Assembly (NCBI RefSeq): GCF_000020145.1
Contig: NC_010644.1
Location: forward strand, 1,488,001-1,552,000
DNA: 64,000 nt
Direction of reading: 5' to 3'
Origin: Elusimicrobium minutum Pei191
GTDB lineage: Bacteria; Elusimicrobiota; Elusimicrobia; Elusimicrobiales; Elusimicrobiaceae
Shown: positions 53,006-63,928 of the stretch, one piece after another
Layout of the letters: every line of letters starts with the position of its first letter
Position numbering within the stretch: the stretch's first letter is position 1
The notes under the pieces: generated by a model
Told to the model about the DNA's origin: nothing
Database searches by the model: none
What the model saw: the letters and a program-made list of their open reading frames with translations, nothing else
Program-made: the position numbers and the translations under genes

Positions 53006-53032
53006 ATTTGGGTAGTGATTAAAAAGATTTCC

Positions 53033-53103
53033 GCGGGCGTGGTTCAATGGTAGAACATAACCTTGCCAAGGTTGAGACGAGGGTTCGATTCCCTTCGCCC
53101 GCT
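53033..53103 (+). tRNA. tRNA-Gly(GCC), integration site
   Basis: 71 nt plus: acceptor GCGGGCG/CGCCCGC, anticodon GCC in ACCTTGCCAAGGT, discriminator T. No CCA encoded. Its last 41 bases form the left att repeat of the mobile element; the gene remains intact because the element brings the same 3' end. Confidence 0.97.
53063..53103 (+). mobile_element. attL, 41-bp direct repeat
   Basis: Identical to 63723-63763. Runs from the anticodon loop of tRNA-Gly to its discriminator base, the standard target for tyrosine integrases. Confidence 0.95.
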
Positions 53104-53171: not shown

Positions 53172-53194
53172 TTCTCCCATTGAACCACGCCCGC
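53172..53194 (-). repeat. Inverted copy of the tRNA-Gly 5' half
   Basis: On the minus strand 22 of 23 bases match the first 23 of tRNA-Gly (GCGGGCGTGGTTCAATGG, then one mismatch, then AGAA). The rest cannot fold as a tRNA. Confidence 0.75.
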
Positions 53195-53228
53195 AAAAAT
53201 CTGGTGTTTCTTGGGTTTGTGTAAATGA

Positions 53229-53259
53229 GGTAAGGTTTGGGAAGGTTTTGGTAAGGTTA
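53229..53259. repeat. Left arm-type repeats
   Basis: Three near-tandem copies of GGTAAGGTTT-like decamers at 53229, 53239 and 53250. TGGGAAGGTTTTGGTAAG (53238-53255) recurs exactly at 63628-63645 near the right end. Probably integrase arm sites. Confidence 0.6.
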
Positions 53260-54999: not shown

Positions 55000-55311
55000 T
55001 TTTCATCATTTTTTATGTGTGGGAACTCATTACCACATATCCCATATAAATGATGAAGTCAGGAAAATTGGCAAAATACTGAATTTTAGGCTGTTTTTTA
55101 TGCTTTTGGCTCTCTTTCGGGGCCTTTTTATATATAAGGGGTATATATTTACCGCGACAGGCAGAAAGTCCCTTAAAAACAGTAATTGGGTGCGGAAAAC
55201 GGATTTAGAAACAAAAGAGCCCCGCACATTGGTTGAATGCAAGGGGTAGTAGGGATTTCAGGATATTGGCATGACAATCGTTTTTTATTGTCTTTTTTCT
55301 AAAAAACAACA
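55000..55311. other. Upstream region of the Rep gene
   Basis: No convincing gene. A 76-codon plus-strand frame exists (55019-55249) but lacks a Shine-Dalgarno and protein-like features. Confidence 0.4.
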
Positions 55312-55345
55312 AATTTTTATATCAATATATATAGTAATACTATAT
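55312..55345 (+). repeat. Palindromic element repeat, copy A (GTAATAC version)
   Basis: TATATCAATATATATAGTAA with palindrome TATAGTAATACTATA at 55330-55344. Not obviously at the end of a gene. Confidence 0.8.
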
Positions 55346-55479
55346 GGATAGTGAAGGAGTGATTGCGGTTTTTTGAAACGCGAGTGCAGTAAGTAGGCTG
55401 AATTAGTTGTGGGGGATACTTTTTTGCCGCAACAAAACAAAAGTTTTTTTAATATGATAATGGGCAGTTATGGTACAAA

Positions 55480-55706
55480 TTCACGAGAAAAATTATAAAA
55501 TATATCTAGACGTACTAAAATTTATGTTGCATTAGATTGTTTTTGGACCCGTGCCGAAAGGGTACGGATTAGCCTAGACGTTTTAGGTTTTCTTATCACT
55601 CCAAGAATAATCGCTCGCTTTATCGGCATATCCTAGTGATGTGCCGAGGGCGGCGGTTATCTATGGGAATGTGATAAGACTCATAGCATAGTTCGCCGCC
55701 TTTTTT
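55480..55706 (+). ncRNA. Possible structured RNA ending in a terminator
   Basis: Contains a CCGTGCC-GAAA-GGGTACGG hairpin with a GNRA loop near 55550-55568, a CTAGAC repeat, and a final long hairpin: GGCGGCG (55649-55655) with CGCCGCC (55694-55700) enclosing CTATG/CATAG, followed by a T6 run. It ends 58 bp before the 55765 gene. It could be a small RNA, or an attenuator that controls that gene. Confidence 0.35.
55649..55706 (+). terminator. Long-stem terminator
   Basis: 7-bp GC stem with an internal second stem and T6; see the structured RNA entry. Confidence 0.65.
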
Positions 55707-55764: not shown

Positions 55765-56154
55765 ATGGCATTAATAAAATGTAACGAATGCGCCAAAGAA
55801 CATTCAGATGTAGCGGTAAGCTGTCCGCATTGCGGATACAGCAGCAAAGCAGAAGTCCAAAAAGTTAATTCAGCAGGAAACAGGGCGAGGAAAAAGAAAA
55901 TACTTTTTTGGCTCCTTTCCTTAATAATCTGCCTTGTGATATTCGGCATAGCGTTATTTATAGATAACGCGATAGTCAGTCATAACAGAGGGGTATATGC
56001 AAGTGCGGGGCCTTTGGCAACCGGAACGATAAGTAGAGGGATGGGGTTCAGTATTTATTGTGTTATTTCGCTTACCATAGGTATTTTAGGCGGATTTATT
56101 TCTGCATTAATGGTTGTGATAAAAATCATATCCTACTGGATTAATAAAAATTAA
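55765..56154 (+). CDS. Zinc ribbon membrane protein
   Basis: 129 residues. CNECAKEHSDVAVSCPHCG is a four-Cys zinc ribbon of the zinc-ribbon_2 type; a Lys/Arg stretch and two membrane helices (about 46-66, 94-122) follow. The ribbon lies in the cytoplasm by the positive-inside rule. Similar proteins occur in many mobile elements. A GAGGT Shine-Dalgarno is present; 18 bp before the next gene, so operonic. Confidence 0.75.
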   Translation: MALIKCNECAKEHSDVAVSCPHCGYSSKAEVQKVNSAGNRARKKKILFWLLSLIICLVIFGIALFIDNAIVSHNRGVYASAGPLATGTISRGMGFSIYCVISLTIGILGGFISALMVVIKIISYWINKN

Positions 56155-56172
56155 GTTAACGGAGAATAAAAA

Positions 56173-57081
56173 ATGAAAAAAATTATAATACCCTTAATAT
56201 GCTTAGCCGTTTGTTTATGTGCCTGTGGTAATAAGGAAGAAAGTTTATATAAAAAAGCAACTAATTTAGAAAAAGCTTTTGAATATGAGCAAGCGGGTAT
56301 AGAATATAAAAAATTTATTTATACTTTTCCCGAATCCGCTCTTTTGCCACAAATTAAAGATAGCTTGGAGAGTGTCGAAAACAAGCAAAAAGAAATCAAT
56401 AAAAATATTTCAGAGGTAGAAGCTTTTAATGAAGTTGGTAATTATGATAATGCATTGAGAAACTTGGAAATTGTATCTTCTGGTTCAATTTCGGTGAATA
56501 CAAAGAAAAAACTAGCAACCATAAAAGCTGATATTTTAAAAAATCAAAAAGAAAATAAACTTGGCGGTGGCTATCAAGACGCTAAATGGGGGATGTCAAA
56601 ATCTGAAGTCAAAAAGGTGCTCGGATATAGGGTTAAAGAGGAGGGCTCCAACTGGATAACATTTAATCTAGGCAACAGAAAAGAATTAGACGCTGTGTTC
56701 TTTAATGGGAAATTATATTTAGCAAGATTGTCGCCAAAAATAGAAACTGAAAAAGAATATAAGGGTTTATTGCTTGGTCTGGTGTCAAAGTTTGGAGAAG
56801 GCACTCCACAAAGCAATATGACACGCTCATATTTACATACTCTTGAGATACCTGTTGTAACTATTGTTTGGGAAGATGCCAACACGAATATTACTTGGTC
56901 TGCGTGGGATAATACAAGCAGGGATGTGCAAAACTTTTCTTATGATGAAAGCTTTGTAAGAGACTCCGTCATGATAGAATATTCAAGCAAAAGAATTGAA
57001 GAAGAGAAAAGATTGTCAGGAATTCAAAAAGATGGAGAGGTATTAAAAAAAGAGGCGGACAAAGTTTCATCTTACCTTTAA
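56173..57081 (+). CDS. Lipoprotein with helical N-terminal region
   Basis: 302 residues. Signal peptide with lipobox LCAC (Cys17 or 18). Residues about 25-130 look like TPR-type helical hairpins (YKKATNLEKAFEYEQAGIEY, EVGNYDNALRNLEIV). The C-terminal domain starts GGGYQDAKWGMSKSEVKKVLG, a motif common in small secreted proteins, and is probably beta-rich. Function unknown. A GGAG precedes the ATG. Its transcript ends at a hairpin (57114-57154). It is the second gene of a two-gene operon. Confidence 0.75.
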   Translation: MKKIIIPLICLAVCLCACGNKEESLYKKATNLEKAFEYEQAGIEYKKFIYTFPESALLPQIKDSLESVENKQKEINKNISEVEAFNEVGNYDNALRNLEIVSSGSISVNTKKKLATIKADILKNQKENKLGGGYQDAKWGMSKSEVKKVLGYRVKEEGSNWITFNLGNRKELDAVFFNGKLYLARLSPKIETEKEYKGLLLGLVSKFGEGTPQSNMTRSYLHTLEIPVVTIVWEDANTNITWSAWDNTSRDVQNFSYDESFVRDSVMIEYSSKRIEEEKRLSGIQKDGEVLKKEADKVSSYL

Positions 57082-57182: not shown

Positions 57183-57950
57183 TTACAGAGCTGTTGTTCT
57201 TCTACAAATTGTTTTAATTATATTATTTGCTAAGGTTCTCACTTCTTCAAAGGCTAATGGTGGGTAGCATCTATCCTCATTAACCACGCTGAGGTATTTG
57301 GTGAGTCTGCTCTTTTCTTTAGAGCGGTTATAAGCAAAACCAACGCCAATCCTAAAAAGCTGACTGTTACGCTCACCCTCTCTAAAAATATTATTCTTTA
57401 CTTGCCTTAAAATCACTTCTAAGAGGTTTGCAGGTATGTCGGCTATGGTTATATCATTATGCATTTTATAAGCGGCTCCGCTGATGTGGATAGATGGCGG
57501 TATTATTACATAACCGCCGTTTGCCTTAAAATCTACGCCTTGAAGTAAGTTTATTTTTGAGGCAAGATATTGGTATTGCATCGGCAACTTAAAATAATAG
57601 TGAAAGCCATTGCCTGTTGATACTGTGTAGGTAGAGGGCAGGTTATATGGGGCAATAGATTTGTCGCCGTCTTTTCTAAAATCAATATCAACCACTACAA
57701 TATTGCTCGGCTTGCCTGTGGCTACGGCCCAGTTGCAGCTTTCTTTTATTGACGTTGTCCAATTTTTTATTTGGCTGATGTTGGAGGAGGCTATTTTGTG
57801 TCCGCCTTTAAACATCGGGTGTTTGGCAGGGCAATTGCAGCTTGCGTTAAAGCATGCGCATTTCTTTTCTTTTGGATACCACACAGGAAATACTTTAAAG
57901 CCACGCCTTAATTGTTTTGCAAGAACGGGGTTAATTGTTTCTATCGTCAT
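57183..57950 (-). CDS. Primase-polymerase (prim-pol domain)
   Basis: 255 residues. The archaeo-eukaryotic prim-pol fold: VVVDIDFRKDGD (DxD metal site, near residue 93), STGNGFHYYFKLP (His of the sTGxGxHxyf motif, near 118) and GVDFKANGGYVIIPPS. A C-terminal helical part starting REGERNSQLFRIG resembles the PriCT domain. No helicase is fused or adjacent. The unusual Cys-rich CACFNASCNCPAKHP near residue 31 is typical of the family's insertion. Together with Rep it forms a replication module. AGAGGAG precedes the ATG. Confidence 0.85.
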   Translation of the reverse strand: MTIETINPVLAKQLRRGFKVFPVWYPKEKKCACFNASCNCPAKHPMFKGGHKIASSNISQIKNWTTSIKESCNWAVATGKPSNIVVVDIDFRKDGDKSIAPYNLPSTYTVSTGNGFHYYFKLPMQYQYLASKINLLQGVDFKANGGYVIIPPSIHISGAAYKMHNDITIADIPANLLEVILRQVKNNIFREGERNSQLFRIGVGFAYNRSKEKSRLTKYLSVVNEDRCYPPLAFEEVRTLANNIIKTICRRTTAL

Positions 57951-58540: not shown

Positions 58541-59620
58541 ATGATAAATAGCACAACATATGTTCCCATACTTAAATGGAAGCAGGGCGAATATCAAGCC
58601 CTTTTAAAATTGGACGAACGAATTAAAGATAGAATCATCCCTTTAATCGAAATTACGCCTCCGGGTTATGACTATGAAACAAAAACCGCAAGGAATATTA
58701 ACGAGCATATATCTGACCTTGCCTCTCGTTTAAAAACAAAATGGGGCAGAGAGGCGTTAATTGACATTGACCCTATCGGATTAACTACGGACAAACCAGA
58801 ATATATATTAAAGATATTTGAAATGTATAGAGTTGGCGGGTGCACAGTAACCCCTGTAGTAAAGCTGGACGAAACTGCAGGAGCCTTGGCCGCATACACA
58901 GCAGTAATAAAAACAGACAAAAGGGGTGCTGTTCTCCGTATTAAGACAAATAATTTTGCAAGCCAATCAGAAATTGAGGCGAACATAACAAGGGTCTGCA
59001 AATCACTCGGCTTAGGGAAGCCAGATATTGACCTGGTTATTGATTTTGAAAAGGTTTCTATTGTGGTTAATGAAGAGTCCACTTTTGAAACTATGCAGGG
59101 ATTCTTTCATAAAATACCCGATATAAATTTTTGGCGTTCCTTTACGGTCGCAGGCAGCTCTATGGCAGAAAGCAACCAGGACATCAATCTTTATAAAAGG
59201 GCAGAGTGGTTATTCTATAAATATTGCGTAAGTAAGTTTAGAAACTCTTTCCGTCTACCTGCTTTTTCTGACTACGCCATAGGCACACCAAAGCACGCCG
59301 CTCCAAACTTGGATATGCGAACCTTTACTCCTATGGCAAAGGTTAGGTATACATTTGATTCTGAATGGTATTATTATACTGGAGCACCTGTTAAGGGTAG
59401 AAAATCGCAAGGGTTCGGGCAGTATAAAAAACTTTGCGAAGACCTTGTAAAGCGAGACGAGTATCGCGGTGAGGAGTTTTCTGCTGGGGATAAGTATATA
59501 AAAGAGTGCGCAGGTGGAAAGGGTACGGGAAATTTAAGTACTTGGATATGGGTTGCAACAAATCAGCACCTAACTAAGGTTGCATCTGACCTCTCCAATT
59601 TGTACGGTTTTTCAATATAG
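58541..59620 (+). CDS. Beta-family protein, defence candidate
   Basis: 359 residues. The opening YVPILKWKQGEYQALLKLDE, then RIIPLIEITPPG, is the signature of the phage/island beta-protein family; a related family (sce7725) is often found beside sce7726-type genes. The middle has alternating beta strands and helices (LIDIDPIGL, TPVVKLDE, IDLVIDFEKV), suggesting a TIM-barrel-like fold. Ends CAGGKGTGNLSTWIWVATNQHLTKV. No catalytic residue can be named. It overlaps the convergent sce7726 gene by 47 bp at the 3' end. Shine-Dalgarno AAGGAAGAG. Confidence 0.75.
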   Translation: MINSTTYVPILKWKQGEYQALLKLDERIKDRIIPLIEITPPGYDYETKTARNINEHISDLASRLKTKWGREALIDIDPIGLTTDKPEYILKIFEMYRVGGCTVTPVVKLDETAGALAAYTAVIKTDKRGAVLRIKTNNFASQSEIEANITRVCKSLGLGKPDIDLVIDFEKVSIVVNEESTFETMQGFFHKIPDINFWRSFTVAGSSMAESNQDINLYKRAEWLFYKYCVSKFRNSFRLPAFSDYAIGTPKHAAPNLDMRTFTPMAKVRYTFDSEWYYYTGAPVKGRKSQGFGQYKKLCEDLVKRDEYRGEEFSAGDKYIKECAGGKGTGNLSTWIWVATNQHLTKVASDLSNLYGFSI

Positions 59621-60167
59621 TTCTTGTCAGCGACTTTAATTTAGCAAGAGAAATATTTTCGGTAAGCATCTTATATAAAGTAGCCTTAGGATATCGCAAG
59701 TCTTTTGGGGCAAAACCTAATTGTTCTAATAAAGAAACGACTTCATCCTTCCATAATAGTTGGACTAATGATGAAGCGTCAATATTATAATTTACAAGGC
59801 CAGGTCTATATTTTTTTATAGATAAGACGTGCTTTTTATTAGGATAAGCGACTTTGATTTCCCACCAAGTTGGAACAAGAGCTATTGCCTTTTGTAAGTG
59901 CCTTTTGGCAACAACCAAAGTAACTCTGTCCAATATTTTGCTATATGCTTCGGCTTGCAAGGGTAGACGGGCTAGGGTGTCGACATCACTTTTGATTTCG
60001 TATCCATGCATTTTGCCGTTTATAACAGCAATGTCTACACGATGAAGACCCTGCATAACCCCCATCTCGTCAAGAATAAGGGTATCGTCATCATTTGAGT
60101 ATTTCTTTAAGTCGTTGTTATACAAAGCCTGCCTGATATCAACGTCTCTAAATAATGCTGTGCCCAT
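59574..60167 (-). CDS. sce7726-family PD-(D/E)XK protein
   Basis: 197 residues. RDVDIRQAL near the N-terminus and HRVDIAVINGKMHGYEIKSDVDTLARLPLQ match the sce7726 family. Glu34, Asp45 and Glu57-x-Lys59 give a PD-(D/E)XK nuclease site, and VPTWWEIKVAYP is the conserved Trp motif. A nuclease role is inferred. Convergent with the beta protein, 3' ends overlapping. GGGGAG precedes the ATG; a 39-codon ORF lies 50 bp upstream. Confidence 0.8.
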   Translation of the reverse strand: MGTALFRDVDIRQALYNNDLKKYSNDDDTLILDEMGVMQGLHRVDIAVINGKMHGYEIKSDVDTLARLPLQAEAYSKILDRVTLVVAKRHLQKAIALVPTWWEIKVAYPNKKHVLSIKKYRPGLVNYNIDASSLVQLLWKDEVVSLLEQLGFAPKDLRYPKATLYKMLTENISLAKLKSLTRTILKNRTNWRGQMQP

Positions 60168-60217
60168 AATTTCTCCCCGATATTATTATAACCTTTTTTC
60201 TCCTTTTTAACAGCCCC

Positions 60218-60337
60218 TTAGATTAGGCTCTTTGTTATTGACGGGTATTTGCAGGCTAAAACTTTACAGGCTGTAACAAAAGAATCTTCTTTTGCAGTTT
60301 GAGCAGTTGAGGCAATGAGGTAAAATAACTGTGGCAT
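60218..60337 (-). CDS. Possible 39-residue gene upstream of sce7726
   Basis: MPQLFYLIASTAQTAKEDSF and on to ...SITKSLI. An AAGGAG lies 11 nt before its ATG and it precedes sce7726 on the same strand. About 25 of 28 bases around ACTGCAAAAGAAGAT match the ribbon-helix-helix gene at 62492 in the same frame, so it may be a decayed relative or chance. Confidence 0.35.
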   Translation of the reverse strand: MPQLFYLIASTAQTAKEDSFVTACKVLACKYPSITKSLI

Positions 60338-60437
60338 ATAATTATGGTCTCCTTTTTATTTTGAGTATAAAAATATAATTGAGGATTTAGACGGTTATGC
60401 TAGCGCAGCAACGAAACTCTAAAAAAAATGAAAAGTA

Positions 60438-60474
60438 ATAAAATTTAATATCAATATATATACTAATAGTATAG
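60438..60474 (+). repeat. Palindromic element repeat, copy B (CTAATAG version)
   Basis: ATAAAATTTAATATCAATAT and on, with TATACTAATAGTATA at 60459-60473. It lies 67 bp before the Abi gene. Confidence 0.85.
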
Positions 60475-60541
60475 TGGGCTATTTGAGGTGTTTGGTTTTA
60501 ACCTCTAATCAATATCAGGTATAATTTAGTTAGAGGACTTT

Positions 60542-61429
60542 ATGGAAACATACGAAATTACCGAGATTACAAGACGTGCGATTATAGACGAATTCATGTT
60601 AACTCCGCAACCATATCATGGGAAACTTGAAGAGGTTGACTTTCTAGAAAGATTGTATCCTCTTGCAAAAATGCCTTCTACTGATGGAAGGTTTTCAAAT
60701 GCAGGAGGAGATATTTATCAGCACAGAATAAATAATTTTGACTGGCCTGACGAATGGATTTGGAGCGATAGCCGTTTTAATCTTTTGCGTACATCTGACC
60801 AAGTATTTACTAGATTCATTTGTGAAATGTTGCATCCTGTAGTTAGGCATGAGAATGATGTTGCCCCATTGTTGGCAGCTTTTAATAGACAGCTTGCAAA
60901 TGATAATTGGGAAATATATAGAGAACGGGAAATATCCAAGCGACCAGTTTTTGCTGCTCGTAAAATAGGTAGCAAGCCTCCTCTTATTAAAAAGATTAAA
61001 AACATAGACCACGATTTTATTGCAGAGCAAATTAAAAAATCAGAAGAGAAGTTGGATAAAAACGATTTTGATGGAGCGATAACTAATGCTCGTTCTTTGG
61101 TTGAAGCTATCTTATGTTATATTGCAAAAAACTTAGATATAAAATTGCCCGAGTATGATGGGGATTTATTTAAATTATATAAAACAATAAGAAAAGACCT
61201 TAAACTAGAAATAACTGATGATATGGATAATATTTTAAAACAAATTATAACAGGGCTTTCGTCTATCATATCAGGGTTAAGTGGCTTAAGCAATAAAATG
61301 GGGGACAGGCATGTCAGGCAATATAAACCTAATAAACATCATGCGAAGCTAGCAGTAAATGTATCTCAAATTTTTTGCGAGTTTTTATTGGACAGCTATG
61401 AATATCAAAAGACGAGGCAAAAACAATAA
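60542..61429 (+). CDS. Abortive infection protein (Abi C-terminal domain)
   Basis: 295 residues. The C-terminal third matches the Abi_C family: helices from IAEQIKKSEEKLDKNDFDGAI through NARSLVEAILCYIAKNLDIKL, then SNKMGDRHVRQY and HHAKLAVNVSQIFCEFLLDSY. Such proteins protect populations from phage by stopping growth of infected cells; the trigger and target are not readable. The N-terminal 150 residues match nothing I know. TATAAT at about 60521 and AGAGGA precede the ATG. Its stop codon lies inside repeat copy C. Confidence 0.75.
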   Translation: METYEITEITRRAIIDEFMLTPQPYHGKLEEVDFLERLYPLAKMPSTDGRFSNAGGDIYQHRINNFDWPDEWIWSDSRFNLLRTSDQVFTRFICEMLHPVVRHENDVAPLLAAFNRQLANDNWEIYREREISKRPVFAARKIGSKPPLIKKIKNIDHDFIAEQIKKSEEKLDKNDFDGAITNARSLVEAILCYIAKNLDIKLPEYDGDLFKLYKTIRKDLKLEITDDMDNILKQIITGLSSIISGLSGLSNKMGDRHVRQYKPNKHHAKLAVNVSQIFCEFLLDSYEYQKTRQKQ

Positions 61430-61462
61430 AATTTAATATCAATATATATACTAATAGTATAG
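61419..61462 (+). repeat. Palindromic element repeat, copy C (CTAATAG version)
   Basis: Begins AAAAACAATAAAATTTAATA and ends TATAG. The TAA of the Abi gene (61427-61429) is part of it. A 43-bp span matches copy E with one mismatch. Confidence 0.85.
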
Positions 61463-61493
61463 CGAAGTAGATTTGCGAAACAAAGGAGGGCGT

Positions 61494-62120
61494 ATGAAGA
61501 AATTAATTTTTATCTTGCCTATTATTTTTTTGGGTTGTGCTACCGCATCTACACAATCGGCGCGTGAACGCAATGAAAAGTGTTCAGAGTTTGAAGAGGT
61601 GGAAGTTTTCCAAACTTTCAATGACGGCGGACTTGCGTATGTTTGTGAACGAAAATCTTATGACAATTGTGCAATGGGAATGACTGTTGCCGTTTTAAAA
61701 GAAAGAGGAGAAGACCTCTGGGATAGCAAACGGATTAAAGCACCAAAGGGTAAATGCTTTGCATATGACGGCGTTTATAAATATATAAGCAAAGATGAGA
61801 GAGGTAGAACTGTTCCAATCGTTCGCTTAGATTATGCTTATGCCCCTTCATCTGAAAAAGAAGCTTTAGAAAGGGTGGAAGATTTGAGAGTCCATCTATA
61901 TCACGAATGTCTAGATGAAGCCAATGCAGAGTTTATTAATGAAAAAGAGACGAATACAAATAAATGTAAATGTTTTGCCGATTTAACTGTTGAAAAATTG
62001 ATAAATATTGCTTCTATGGATAATCAAACGCAGGACACAGTGGCAAAAACGTTTGGTAAAAGCTTCATAACAGAAGCAGAAAAAGCATGTGGCAAAATGC
62101 CGAAGAACATTAAAATTTAA
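61494..62120 (+). CDS. Lipoprotein, unknown function
   Basis: 208 residues from the ATG at 61494 (MKKLIFILPIIFLGCATAST), which has AAAGGAGGG just before it; an in-frame ATG at 61473 would translate the Shine-Dalgarno. Lipobox FLGC (Cys15). The mature protein has many Cys (EKCSEF, YVCERKSYDNCAMG, GKCFAYDG, HECLDEA, NKCKCFADL, KACGK), unusual for a lipoprotein in this genome segment and suggesting disulfides. Its TAA stop lies inside repeat copy D. Confidence 0.75.
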   Translation: MKKLIFILPIIFLGCATASTQSARERNEKCSEFEEVEVFQTFNDGGLAYVCERKSYDNCAMGMTVAVLKERGEDLWDSKRIKAPKGKCFAYDGVYKYISKDERGRTVPIVRLDYAYAPSSEKEALERVEDLRVHLYHECLDEANAEFINEKETNTNKCKCFADLTVEKLINIASMDNQTQDTVAKTFGKSFITEAEKACGKMPKNIKI

Positions 62121-62146
62121 TATCAATATATATAGTAATACTATAG
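62110..62146 (+). repeat. Palindromic element repeat, copy D (GTAATAC version)
   Basis: TAAAATTTAATATCAATATA and on, with TATAGTAATACTATA at 62131-62145. Overlaps the stop of the lipoprotein gene. Confidence 0.85.
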
Positions 62147-62286
62147 CGGAGCGGACAGAGCGGCTTTTAACAGCCTTATTTTATTAGTGCAACAACAGCT
62201 TATATTCTGCGGTGTTTGTAAATGGTTTGCGGAGTAGCAATTTACATCTATACTATCTCTTCAAATCTGCGTCTAAATGTATTTTT
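62147..62286. other. Empty interval between repeats D and E
   Basis: 140 bp bounded by oppositely oriented repeats. No gene seen. Confidence 0.5.
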
Positions 62287-62329
62287 TATACTATTAGTAT
62301 ATATATTGGTATTAAATTTTATTGTTTTT
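62287..62329 (-). repeat. Palindromic element repeat, copy E, inverted
   Basis: Minus-strand copy beginning AAAAACAATAAAATTTAATA. It sits at the 3' end of the ribbon-helix-helix gene, the same position relative to the gene as copies C and D. Confidence 0.85.
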
Positions 62330-62492
62330 ATTTAACCCTTAGATATTGCTCTAACGCCTTCCTAATAACCCAAGATACACTCCTATCTTCTTTTGCAGTA
62401 TGAGCATTGAGTGCTTTAAGCAGCTTTTCATTAAGAACAAAGCTGACTGTTATATTATTATTTTCTGAACTTTCTTTAGTTGTTTTTGCCAT
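62328..62492 (-). CDS. Ribbon-helix-helix DNA-binding protein
   Basis: 54 residues from the ATG at 62492 (MAKTTKESSENNNITVSFVLN). The segment ITVSFVLNEKLLKALNAHTAKEDRSVSWVIRKALEQYL (in pieces) is a CopG/Arc ribbon-helix-helix: a beta strand and two helices, acting as a dimer on palindromic DNA. Divergent from the integrase by 99 bp, so a likely regulator of excision. It may also bind the element palindromes. The promoter TGCTATAAT ends 6 nt before the ATG: leaderless. Confidence 0.8.
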   Translation of the reverse strand: MAKTTKESSENNNITVSFVLNEKLLKALNAHTAKEDRSVSWVIRKALEQYLRVK

Positions 62493-62498
62493 ATATTT

Positions 62499-62507
62499 AT
62501 TATAGCA
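62499..62507 (-). promoter_or_regulatory. Extended -10 promoter of the RHH gene, leaderless
   Basis: TGCTATAAT (hexamer 62499-62504); gap of 6 nt to the ATG. Confidence 0.65.
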
Positions 62508-62556
62508 CAAAAGATAATGATAGATATTGAAAGCTATTTACTAATAGTTATCAATA

Positions 62557-62565
62557 TGTTATAAT
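62557..62565 (+). promoter_or_regulatory. Integrase promoter
   Basis: TGTTATAAT with hexamer 62560-62565. The DNA just before it (CTAATAG, then TATCAATAT) reuses parts of the element repeat in a different order. Confidence 0.65.
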
Positions 62566-62591
62566 AGTGTATATTGCTATAGAGGTCAGAA

Positions 62592-63605
62592 ATGGGCGTT
62601 TTTGAAACAGAAAACGGAACATGGGGTATTGATTACAGATATAAAAGCAAGCGTTATAAAAGAGTTGTTGCTATAACCAGAAAGCTTGCCTTAGACATTG
62701 AGCGTAAAATACTAACAGATATTAAAGAAGGCAAGTTTTTCCCTGATTTAGATAAGCAAGATGTTACATTCGCCGAAATAGCAGAGAGATATTGGTCTCT
62801 TCACGGCAGAAAAACTAGAGGCGCACAAACTTTTAAATATACCTTTGACATAATTCTTTCACGTTTCGGACATATGAAAGTTGCCGATATAACGACAGAA
62901 GACATACAAAAATTTTATAATGACACTTGGGAAAGGACATCTCCTTCAACTGCAAACCGCCACTTTTCTTTATTCCGCGCCATAATTAATAAAGCATTAA
63001 ACCTCAAATTATATAAAGGACAGAATCCTTGTATTGGAGTAGTGCGACAACGTGACAATCCACCCAGAGACAAATATTTTACAAAGGAAGACATCAAAAG
63101 CCTTTTAGTAACGGCAGAGAACAGGCTTAAACCTATTATTGCTTTTGCAGTATTAACGGGCTGTCGTAAAATGGAAATCCTTAATCTTCGCTGGAAAGAT
63201 GTAGATTTTTACGGCGGTATTATTAGAATTACAATGTCTAAGTCAGGCAAACCGAGAGAAATCCCATTAGCAAACGATTTAAGACCAATACTACTAGCCA
63301 TGCATACTAATCCACAAGATAAAGTATTTAACATTACAGTGCCCGCATTAAAATATTCTTTTAATAAACTGCTAAAGAAACTTGGCTTTGAAGGCTACTG
63401 TTTCCACACCTGCCGTCATACATTTGCCAGTCTGTATATGCAAAACGATGGCAATATTACCGATTTACAGCGTATATTAGGCCATGCAACAATAGAGCTA
63501 ACCATGCGATATTCACATTTTAGCCCCCAATACATTCAGCAAACCATTAAAGTTATGGATGGAATTATTGCTTTATCTGAAAATAAGCTTTTAGAGCTAA
63601 CCTAA
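62592..63605 (+). CDS. Tyrosine integrase
   Basis: 337 residues. An N-terminal arm-binding domain (WGIDYRYKSKRYKRV), a SAM-like core-binding domain (about 60-150) and the catalytic domain with Arg in TGCRKMEIL, Lys in SKSGKPREIPL, HTCRH (His and Arg), LGHATIELT (His) and the nucleophile Tyr in MRYSHFS. Complete and probably active. It integrates at tRNA-Gly: the right att repeat begins 117 bp after its stop. AGAGGT precedes the ATG. Confidence 0.95.
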   Translation: MGVFETENGTWGIDYRYKSKRYKRVVAITRKLALDIERKILTDIKEGKFFPDLDKQDVTFAEIAERYWSLHGRKTRGAQTFKYTFDIILSRFGHMKVADITTEDIQKFYNDTWERTSPSTANRHFSLFRAIINKALNLKLYKGQNPCIGVVRQRDNPPRDKYFTKEDIKSLLVTAENRLKPIIAFAVLTGCRKMEILNLRWKDVDFYGGIIRITMSKSGKPREIPLANDLRPILLAMHTNPQDKVFNITVPALKYSFNKLLKKLGFEGYCFHTCRHTFASLYMQNDGNITDLQRILGHATIELTMRYSHFSPQYIQQTIKVMDGIIALSENKLLELT

Positions 63606-63627: not shown

Positions 63628-63650
63628 TGGGAAGGTTTTGGTAAGATTTC
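63628..63650. repeat. Right arm-type repeats
   Basis: Two decamer copies (63629 and 63640), in the same orientation as those at 53229-53259; TGGGAAGGTTTTGGTAAG is identical. Confidence 0.6.
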
Positions 63651-63722: not shown

Positions 63723-63763
63723 TTGCCAAGGTTGAGACGAGGGTTCGATTCCCTTCGCCCGCT
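63723..63763 (+). mobile_element. attR, 41-bp direct repeat
   Basis: Identical to the tRNA-Gly 3' portion at 53063-53103. The 5' half of the tRNA is absent here. Confidence 0.95.
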
Positions 63764-63808: not shown

Positions 63809-63928
63809 ACTATCAGGTATGTTCACTAATCGCCGCAATATATTAAACAAACAACAAAAGTTATGGATGGCGTTATTAGTTTCCCAGAGGGTAGCAACAT
63901 CCCCCTTTTAGAAAATCCGCCGAAATAA
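63809..63928 (+). pseudogene. Tail of a second tyrosine integrase
   Basis: Translates TIRYVH, stop, SPQYIKQTTKVMDGVISFPEG and on to NIPLLENPPK. The complete integrase ends TMRYSHFSPQYIQQTIKVMDG, so 18 of 23 aligned positions agree from the catalytic Tyr region onward. One in-frame TAA and no upstream part: a relic of an older related element. Confidence 0.75.

What the first reader, a model, noticed from the sequence alone, without database searches (positions are those of the whole stretch)
60438..62329. Cassette-like arrangement: genes end inside copies of a shared repeat
Seen: copies C, D and E of an AT-rich repeat sit at the 3' ends of the Abi, lipoprotein and ribbon-helix-helix genes, each in the orientation of its gene; the stop codons of the first two lie inside the repeat. 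C and E share 43 bp with one mismatch. Known: integron cassettes and pdif modules also carry a recombination site at gene ends. One half-site (ATTTAATATCA) is similar to a XerD arm of dif, 9 of 11 by eye. Inference: an exchange system for small accessory genes.
Basis: partly seen in the sequence, partly recalled or inferred. Interest (0 to 1): 0.8.

Follow-up and report, generated by a model that had tools for sequence, protein, structure and literature searches.

The report
Palindromic repeat on a bacterial island
A small mobile DNA island in one bacterium carries five near-identical copies of a short AT-rich sequence, three of them where a gene ends; they look more like docking sites for a regulatory protein than parts of a proven gene-swapping system, and they were found in no other genome searched.

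Summary
The repeat is real: five copies of 43 bp (36-42 of 43 identical pairwise), the only ones found in the 1.64-Mb genome, all inside a 10.7-kb element integrated at tRNA-Gly. Copies C, D and E lie at gene 3' ends in the gene's orientation (P about 0.001-0.002, post hoc); A and B do not. Every copy ends in a perfect 15-bp palindrome, in two compensated forms, which suggests a dimer-bound site. The XerD-arm resemblance is chance level: 62 of 281 equally AT-rich 43-mers of this genome match as well. No integron integrase over cut-off, no attC-like fold and no dif site was found, and the element's integrase probably uses other arm sites. No convincing copy appeared in 339 other phylum genomes, 84,980 species genomes (exact pattern) or viral contigs, so exchange could not be tested. 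Best reading (0.4): dispersed binding sites for the element's ribbon-helix-helix (RHH) protein; the int promoter holds the palindrome core beside TATCAATAT, though general word-sharing there is unremarkable for AT-rich DNA. The outermost copies bracket accessory genes, so cassette or module-boundary roles stay open (0.2 each).

The parts
53033..53103 (+). tRNA-Gly(GCC), attachment site; its 3' part is the left att core
   Evidence: ARAGORN and Rfam; 41-bp core identical to 63723-63763
53240..53255 (+). candidate integrase arm site GGAAGGTTTTGGTAAG (left end; role inferred)
   Evidence: exactly two copies in the 64-kb window, one near each end of the element, none in 400 kb of the same genome
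53832..54986 (-). replication protein, Phage_CRI/G2P type
   Evidence: PF05144, E 3e-8
55302..55344 (+). repeat copy A (palindrome TATAGTAATACTATA); not at a gene end; left edge of the accessory block
55765..57081 (+). two accessory genes: zinc-ribbon protein (55765-56154; Pfam matches just below cut-off) and a probable lipoprotein (56173-57081; weak matches only)
57183..57950 (-). Prim-Pol primase/polymerase
   Evidence: PF09250, E 3e-31
58541..59620 (+). Beta protein / PD-Lambda-2_C (defence-type)
   Evidence: PF14350, E 5e-99; PADLOC E 1e-45
59574..60167 (-). sce7726 family protein (PADLOC 'cll')
   Evidence: NF033832, over its cut-off; PADLOC
60431..60473 (+). repeat copy B; 68 bp upstream of Abi
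60542..61429 (+). AbiJ-type abortive infection gene; its last codons lie in copy C
   Evidence: PF18860 E 2e-52 and PF14355 E 4e-20; PADLOC AbiJ
61419..61461 (+). repeat copy C, 3' end of Abi, 32 bp before the next gene
61494..62120 (+). lipoprotein-like gene of unknown function (by its N-terminus); its last codons lie in copy D
   Evidence: no Pfam or NCBIfam match; homologues in 9 other of 334 phylum genomes
62103..62145 (+). repeat copy D (palindrome TATAGTAATACTATA)
62287..62329 (-). repeat copy E, 3' end of the RHH gene; right edge of the accessory block
62328..62510 (-). ribbon-helix-helix (CopG/Arc type) regulator, divergent from int; proposed binder of the repeats
   Evidence: PF01402, E 5e-9; PHROGs Arc-like and CopG-like repressor models
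62511..62591 (.). RHH-int intergenic region: promoter-like TTTACT-17-TATAAT, palindrome core ACTAATAGT (62540-62548) directly followed by TATCAATAT (62549-62557)
62592..63605 (+). tyrosine integrase of the element
   Evidence: PF00589, E 4e-25; far below XerC, XerD and integron-integrase cut-offs
63630..63645 (+). candidate integrase arm site (right end; role inferred)
63723..63763 (+). right att core (copy of the tRNA-Gly 3' part)

Best explanation
The five copies are dispersed protein-binding sites of a tRNA-integrated mobile element, most likely bound by the element's own RHH protein. A dimer recognises the 15-bp palindrome (TATACTAATAGTATA or its compensated form TATAGTAATACTATA), perhaps helped by the neighbouring TATCAATAT. 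The same protein would act at the divergent RHH/int promoter, where both words recur side by side, and would bind between and behind the accessory genes, in the direction of transcription, to damp stray transcription through the defence genes, much as stoperators are proposed to do in mycobacteriophages. Shown: the repeat, the palindrome with its compensated change, confinement to the element, the RHH-int pairing and its occurrence in relatives, both words in the int promoter region. Inferred: binding by RHH, repression, any effect on transcription.
For: Palindrome perfect in 5 of 5 copies, with one pair switched on both sides, C-G in B, C, E and G-C in A, D. In the libraries searched, RHH is the only gene of the element that matches repressor-type families (the integrase and Rep bind DNA too). 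An RHH homologue sits beside and divergent from int in 10 of 20 related loci. In the window's own 81-bp RHH-int gap the core ACTAATAGT (core forms: 3 in a 453-kb sample) lies directly before TATCAATAT; a core form plus TATCAATA occurs together in 0 of 22,566 sampled windows. ATCAATAT also lies in the promoter-like sequence before Abi (60508; promoter 60498-60525); outside the repeats the element has it 3 times, 0.66 expected, the third inside the Prim-Pol gene. Over whole related loci of about 19 kb the best match of the repeat falls in the RHH-int gap in L077-L080 and L083-L084, 6 of the 10 loci with RHH (gap coordinates); these fall into two groups of similar sequences, so about two independent cases. 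Four copies (B, C, D before or after + genes, E after a - gene) are oriented with transcription as the gene layout implies. The integrase is a poor candidate binder: its likely arm sites have another sequence.
Against: A general measure of words shared between the repeat and the RHH-int gap is not remarkable: 435 of 22,566 sampled windows (1.9%) score as high, but 194 of 2,981 (6.5%) at AT 68-78% and 158 of 891 (18%) at AT >= 75% (gap AT 77%), and 43 of 331 AT-rich windows at k=9. The 9-mer core test was chosen after looking. Scored against pooled AT-rich windows, the related RHH-int gaps reach only the top 4-28%, and the covariance model gives only E = 2.6 in the L079/L080 gaps. The shuffle control reaches the covariation in 49 of 500. 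A degenerate palindrome (13 of 15) overlaps the -10 of the promoter-like site before the Beta gene (58483), but at that looseness the pattern is no commoner in the genome (49) than its reversed control (55), so this may be chance; a perfect palindrome with A-T in place of C-G also occurs once elsewhere in the genome (1204888). Self-comparison of the 20 related loci shows no family of this kind spread among genes (the 3-copy families in L077 and L078 lie just past int and at one distant place, as att repeats would), so the arrangement is not conserved with RHH. A 43-bp conserved unit is longer than an RHH dimer should need. D and E lie in a convergent 3' region where an operator has no promoter to block.
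Confidence: 0.4

Rival explanations
1. Site-specific recombination cassettes: B-Abi-C and C-lipoprotein-D are single-gene cassettes, each gene followed by a 43-bp site, exchanged by an unidentified recombinase.
For: Three gene ends with stop codons in or at the repeat, all in gene orientation; B, C, D in the same orientation with one gene each; flanks mostly unlike while the 43-bp core is 36-42 of 43 identical; A and E enclose genes without homologues in 20 related loci, but for one zinc-ribbon hit.
Against: XerD-arm match at chance level (62 of 281 comparably AT-rich 43-mers), full dif 18-19 of 28, no dif found; no integron integrase over the cut-off; single-strand fold weak, -1.9 to -2.5 kcal/mol on the repeat strand, z-scores -0.4 to -1.0, so not attC-like; own integrase has tRNA att cores and probably other arm sites; no second genome with the site; A-B holds five genes in both orientations.
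Confidence: 0.2
2. Module boundaries: the repeat is a passive patch of shared sequence at which accessory genes were added or lost by ordinary homologous or illegitimate recombination.
For: Repeats bracket the accessory block between Rep and RHH-int, which lie 282-770 bp apart in the nine related loci where both were found. A published parallel: mycobacteriophage LRRHood, a 1.35-kb segment, thought acquired, flanked by 29-bp direct repeats; the single copy in a relative lies at the extreme 3' end of a gene (PMC3029335, passages read).
Against: Does not explain the compensated palindrome or why the shared unit is confined to 43 bp; Rep is also inverted relative to those relatives, so the history is more complex.
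Confidence: 0.2
3. Miniature mobile repeat (MITE- or REP-like) that inserted several times in the element, by chance next to stop codons.
For: Near-identical copies in mostly unlike flanks.
Against: No terminal inverted repeats or evident target duplications in the flanks shown (by eye only); all five copies found lie in 10.6 kb of a 1.64-Mb genome; the Abi_C domain match (positions 2-83 of 83) ends before the repeat, so that gene is not visibly truncated.
Confidence: 0.1
4. RNA-level signal (mRNA 3' end, processing or termination).
For: Three copies at gene 3' ends in the sense direction.
Against: Weak AT-rich hairpin (DNA parameters); none of 16 terminator-like sites in the element overlaps a copy; no Rfam match at the copies up to E 1; A and B are not 3' ends.
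Confidence: 0.07

Closest known systems
Stoperators of cluster A mycobacteriophages (L5, Bxb1)
   Same: Many copies of one repressor site, primarily intergenic and oriented one way relative to transcription (PMC3029335, passages read).
   Different: There 13-bp asymmetric sites, 24 and 34 copies, HTH repressor, phage; here 43 bp with a palindrome, five copies, RHH protein, no phage structural gene seen; binding untested.
pdif (dif) modules of Acinetobacter plasmids
   Different: There sites are akin to chromosomal dif, with XerC and XerD arms (arms recalled); here arm resemblance is chance level and no dif was found.
Integron gene cassettes
   Same: One gene followed by a site, same orientation, short 5' leader (feature list recalled).
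   Different: No integron integrase over the cut-off, no foldable attC-like site.
tRNA-integrated mobile elements with a tyrosine integrase
   Same: tRNA-Gly att cores, arm-like sites, integrase at the end, Rep gene, defence cargo.
   Different: In the nine related loci with both genes Rep lies next to RHH-int, and self-comparison of 20 loci shows no such dispersed repeat.

Membership tests
Integron cassette array | integron-type integrase (IntI) in the genome | tested here: not met
   TIGR02249 over the whole genome: 7 matches, 0 over the 265-bit cut-off; the element's integrase 66 bits
Integron cassette array | attC site with a stable folded single strand | tested here: not met
   MFE -1.6 to -2.5 kcal/mol, z -0.35 to -1.03 for 7 folds
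Integron cassette array | different genes between copies in other genomes | tested here: inconclusive
   no other genome with the repeat:
pdif / Xer module | 28-bp site with XerC and XerD arms similar to host dif | tested here: not met
   18-19 of 28 to a recalled consensus; arm match found in 62 of 281 comparable 43-mers. Host dif itself not located, so a divergent dif cannot be excluded
Repressor / dispersed-operator system | repressor-type gene in the same element | tested here: met
   RHH_1 E 5e-9; PHROGs Arc/CopG repressor models E 3e-5 to 3e-4
Repressor / dispersed-operator system | site recurs in the repressor's own promoter region | tested here: inconclusive
   core 9-mer plus TATCAATAT present (0 of 22,566 windows have both a core form and TATCAATA) but general word-sharing unremarkable
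Repressor / dispersed-operator system | protein binds the sites | not testable with these tools
   needs a binding assay
tRNA-integrated mobile element | tyrosine integrase plus duplicated att core in a tRNA | tested here: met

The most novel reading that the evidence does not exclude
A previously undescribed cassette system: the 43-bp site, with a TAATA-centred palindrome conserved through a compensated change, is acted on by an element-encoded enzyme (for example the Phage_CRI/G2P-type Rep as a rolling-circle nickase) that releases and reinserts single-gene units such as B-Abi-C and C-lipoprotein-D, shuffling defence genes on a small mobile element.
Probability: 0.1. Interest if true: 0.78.

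Novelty: new variant of a known kind. Interest (0 to 1): 0.4.

Why it matters
If the copies are RHH operators, a small mobile element uses dispersed sites to keep its defence cargo and integrase under one regulator, a layout known from mycobacteriophage stoperators. If instead they are recombination sites, it would be a kind of gene cassette beside integrons and dif modules, loaded with anti-phage genes, in what is probably a little-studied phylum (Elusimicrobiota, recalled from genome size).

Tried and rejected
XerC/D or pdif reading: arm match chance level, no dif-like site (one search scanned only 400 kb plus the window with relaxed scoring). Integron reading. Integrase arm-site reading: the candidate arm site GGAAGGTTTTGGTAAG near both ends has another sequence. 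Rolling-circle nick site: no TAATA-centred hairpin with a perfect 6-bp stem within 1.2 kb upstream of rep in 18 related loci; 3 such hairpins in all, two of them (similar loci L083, L084) in the RHH-int gap (gap coordinates). Terminator or structured RNA. Literal search for the repeat: 6 of 339 other phylum genomes match at 2-3 mismatches and the reversed control hits 6 genomes, so chance; 0 exact in viral contigs and in genome contigs, 84,980 species; no blastn match of a 101-bp stretch around copy C in plasmids or phages; the covariance model finds 4 of 333 other phylum genomes at E 0.03-0.07 and none better. Records near the own genome may be left out of some of these collections. Relatives through the integrase in genome contigs and viral contigs: one distant hit and none. 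A possible RHH remnant at 60218-60337 (-): exact shared 15-mer and in-frame TAKED, but 10 of 1074 reading-frame fragments (the intact RHH gene and the remnant itself among them) score as high against RHH, so weak at protein level. Homologues of the lipoprotein (L107-L116) and Abi (L118) were found but their neighbourhoods were not examined. The closest solved structure to RHH by sequence is CdbA at E 0.025, too weak to use. Literature: six searches. For Elusimicrobium minutum with integrase (2 papers, both listed) and with genome and mobile (13 papers, 10 listed), no listed title or abstract start was about this element; those texts were not read.

Full report
What is there. The finding lies in a mobile element of about 10.7 kb inserted at tRNA-Gly(GCC): a 41-bp core of the tRNA 3' part is repeated without mismatch at the other end, a tyrosine integrase sits at the right end, and a 16-bp sequence, GGAAGGTTTTGGTAAG, occurs once inside each end and not at all in 400 kb sampled from the genome; I take it for the integrase arm site (inference).

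The repeat. Five copies of 43 bp: A 55302-55344 (+), B 60431-60473 (+), C 61419-61461 (+), D 62103-62145 (+), E 62287-62329 (-), pairwise 36-42 identities of 43, with flanks that are mostly unlike (C and D still share 7 of the next 10 bases). BLAST, a pattern with up to 3 mismatches and a covariance model find these five in the genome and no others. Each ends in a perfect 15-bp palindrome, TATACTAATAGTATA in B, C, E and TATAGTAATACTATA in A, D: a switch on both sides of one pair. With five sequences this is one pair, and the shuffle control reaches it in 49 of 500, so it is suggestive, not conclusive. An A-T form of the palindrome occurs once elsewhere in the genome. The single-strand fold is weak, so a double-stranded site for a dimer is the likelier meaning.

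Gene ends. C, D and E lie at the 3' ends of Abi, the lipoprotein gene and the RHH gene, in the gene's orientation; A and B do not lie at gene ends. Random placement gives 3 or more of 5 with P 0.0009 (anywhere) or 0.002 (intergenic only) (tolerance chosen after looking). The genes between A and E look accessory: Prim-Pol, Beta protein, sce7726, AbiJ and both lipoprotein genes have no homologue in any of 20 related loci at phmmer E <= 0.01, and the zinc-ribbon gene in 1 of 20; the same holds, though, for the 53327-53746 gene outside A. Rep has a homologue in 16, Int in 18, RHH in 10 of the 20. The loci were picked for Rep or Int hits, so only the RHH count is free of selection. In all 10 loci with RHH it is beside and divergent from int, and in the nine that also have Rep the two lie 282-770 bp apart; here Rep is inverted and separated from RHH by the block that A and E bracket.

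Tests of the Xer and integron readings. B, C and D match the recalled XerD arm at 9 of 11, but so do 62 of 281 (22%) 43-mers with AT >= 85% in a 453-kb sample of the genome. The best 28-bp dif score is 18-19 of 28, and a dif consensus with up to 3 mismatches finds nothing in the genome. The integron-integrase model gives 7 matches, none over the cut-off. The claim of exchange could not be tested. In 339 other phylum genomes the pattern hits no more than its reversed control, 6 genomes each. With the covariance model the best of 333 other phylum genomes is E 0.034. There was no exact match in 84,980 species genomes or in viral contigs, and no blastn match of a 101-bp stretch around copy C in plasmids and phages. 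Records near the own genome may be left out of some of these collections.

The operator reading. The RHH protein is the element's only match to a repressor-type family in the libraries searched. The 81-bp gap between rhh and int holds a promoter-like TTTACT-17-TATAAT with ACTAATAGT, the palindrome core, directly followed by TATCAATAT, both words of the repeat. The core forms occur 3 times in a 453-kb sample, and none of 22,566 sampled windows holds both a core form and TATCAATA. ATCAATAT also lies in the promoter-like sequence before Abi. In related loci the best match to the repeat over about 19 kb is in this same gap in L077-L080 and L083-L084, 6 of 10 loci with RHH, about two independent groups. 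Against it: general word-sharing between repeat and gap is not special for AT-rich DNA, 6.5% of windows at AT 68-78% and 18% at AT >= 75%; against pooled AT-rich windows the relatives' gaps rank only in the top 4-28%; the model score in relatives is insignificant (E 2.6); self-comparison finds no such dispersed family in the 20 loci. A degenerate palindrome at the promoter-like site before the Beta gene (58483) is at chance level, the loose pattern having 49 hits in the genome against 55 for its reversed control. I therefore give 0.4.

Comparison. The nearest published layout known to me is the stoperator system (PMC3029335, passages), where sites are primarily intergenic and oriented with respect to transcription. 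The same paper describes 29-bp direct repeats flanking a segment thought to be acquired, the single copy in a relative lying at a gene's extreme 3' end; it is the model for the module-boundary rival. dif modules (PMC6449649, abstract) are the model for the cassette rival; the defining arms are not met here.

Verdict. A real, element-specific palindromic repeat with a gene-end bias in 3 of 5 copies; the Xer inference is not supported, the exchange inference is untested, and a regulatory binding site is the most economical reading. Interest 0.4; the boldest reading not excluded is a new cassette system (0.1).

Noticed in passing
window 63833-63910: A second, diverged copy of the integrase 3' end lies beyond the right att site (50 bp at 78%; sequences compared), suggesting remains of an earlier element at the same tRNA.
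   Followed up: partly
window 53172-53202: Inverted copy (90% over 31 nt) of the 5' part of tRNA-Gly and its leader (53025-53055), just inside the left end.
   Followed up: no
window 60218-60337 (-): Possible remnant of a second RHH gene beside copy B and divergent from Abi, mirroring the RHH-int layout; DNA match short but good, protein match weak.
   Followed up: partly
window 55440-55700: Non-coding-looking stretch with possible hairpins (by eye) between copy A and the zinc-ribbon gene; no Rfam family there up to E 1.
   Followed up: no
window 58541-61429: Three defence-type genes in a row (Beta/PD-Lambda-2_C, sce7726/cll, AbiJ) on one small element.
   Followed up: partly
L069-L088: A family of small integrated elements in this bacterial family: Phage_CRI-type Rep, small HTH or RHH gene, tyrosine integrase.
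   Followed up: partly
L074, L078-L080 RHH-int gaps: RHH-int gaps of these relatives are rich in TATTGA/TATTGG words (4-5 per gap), a candidate operator motif; the gaps of L082-L086 are not (0-1), and for L077 the coordinates used missed the gap.
   Followed up: partly
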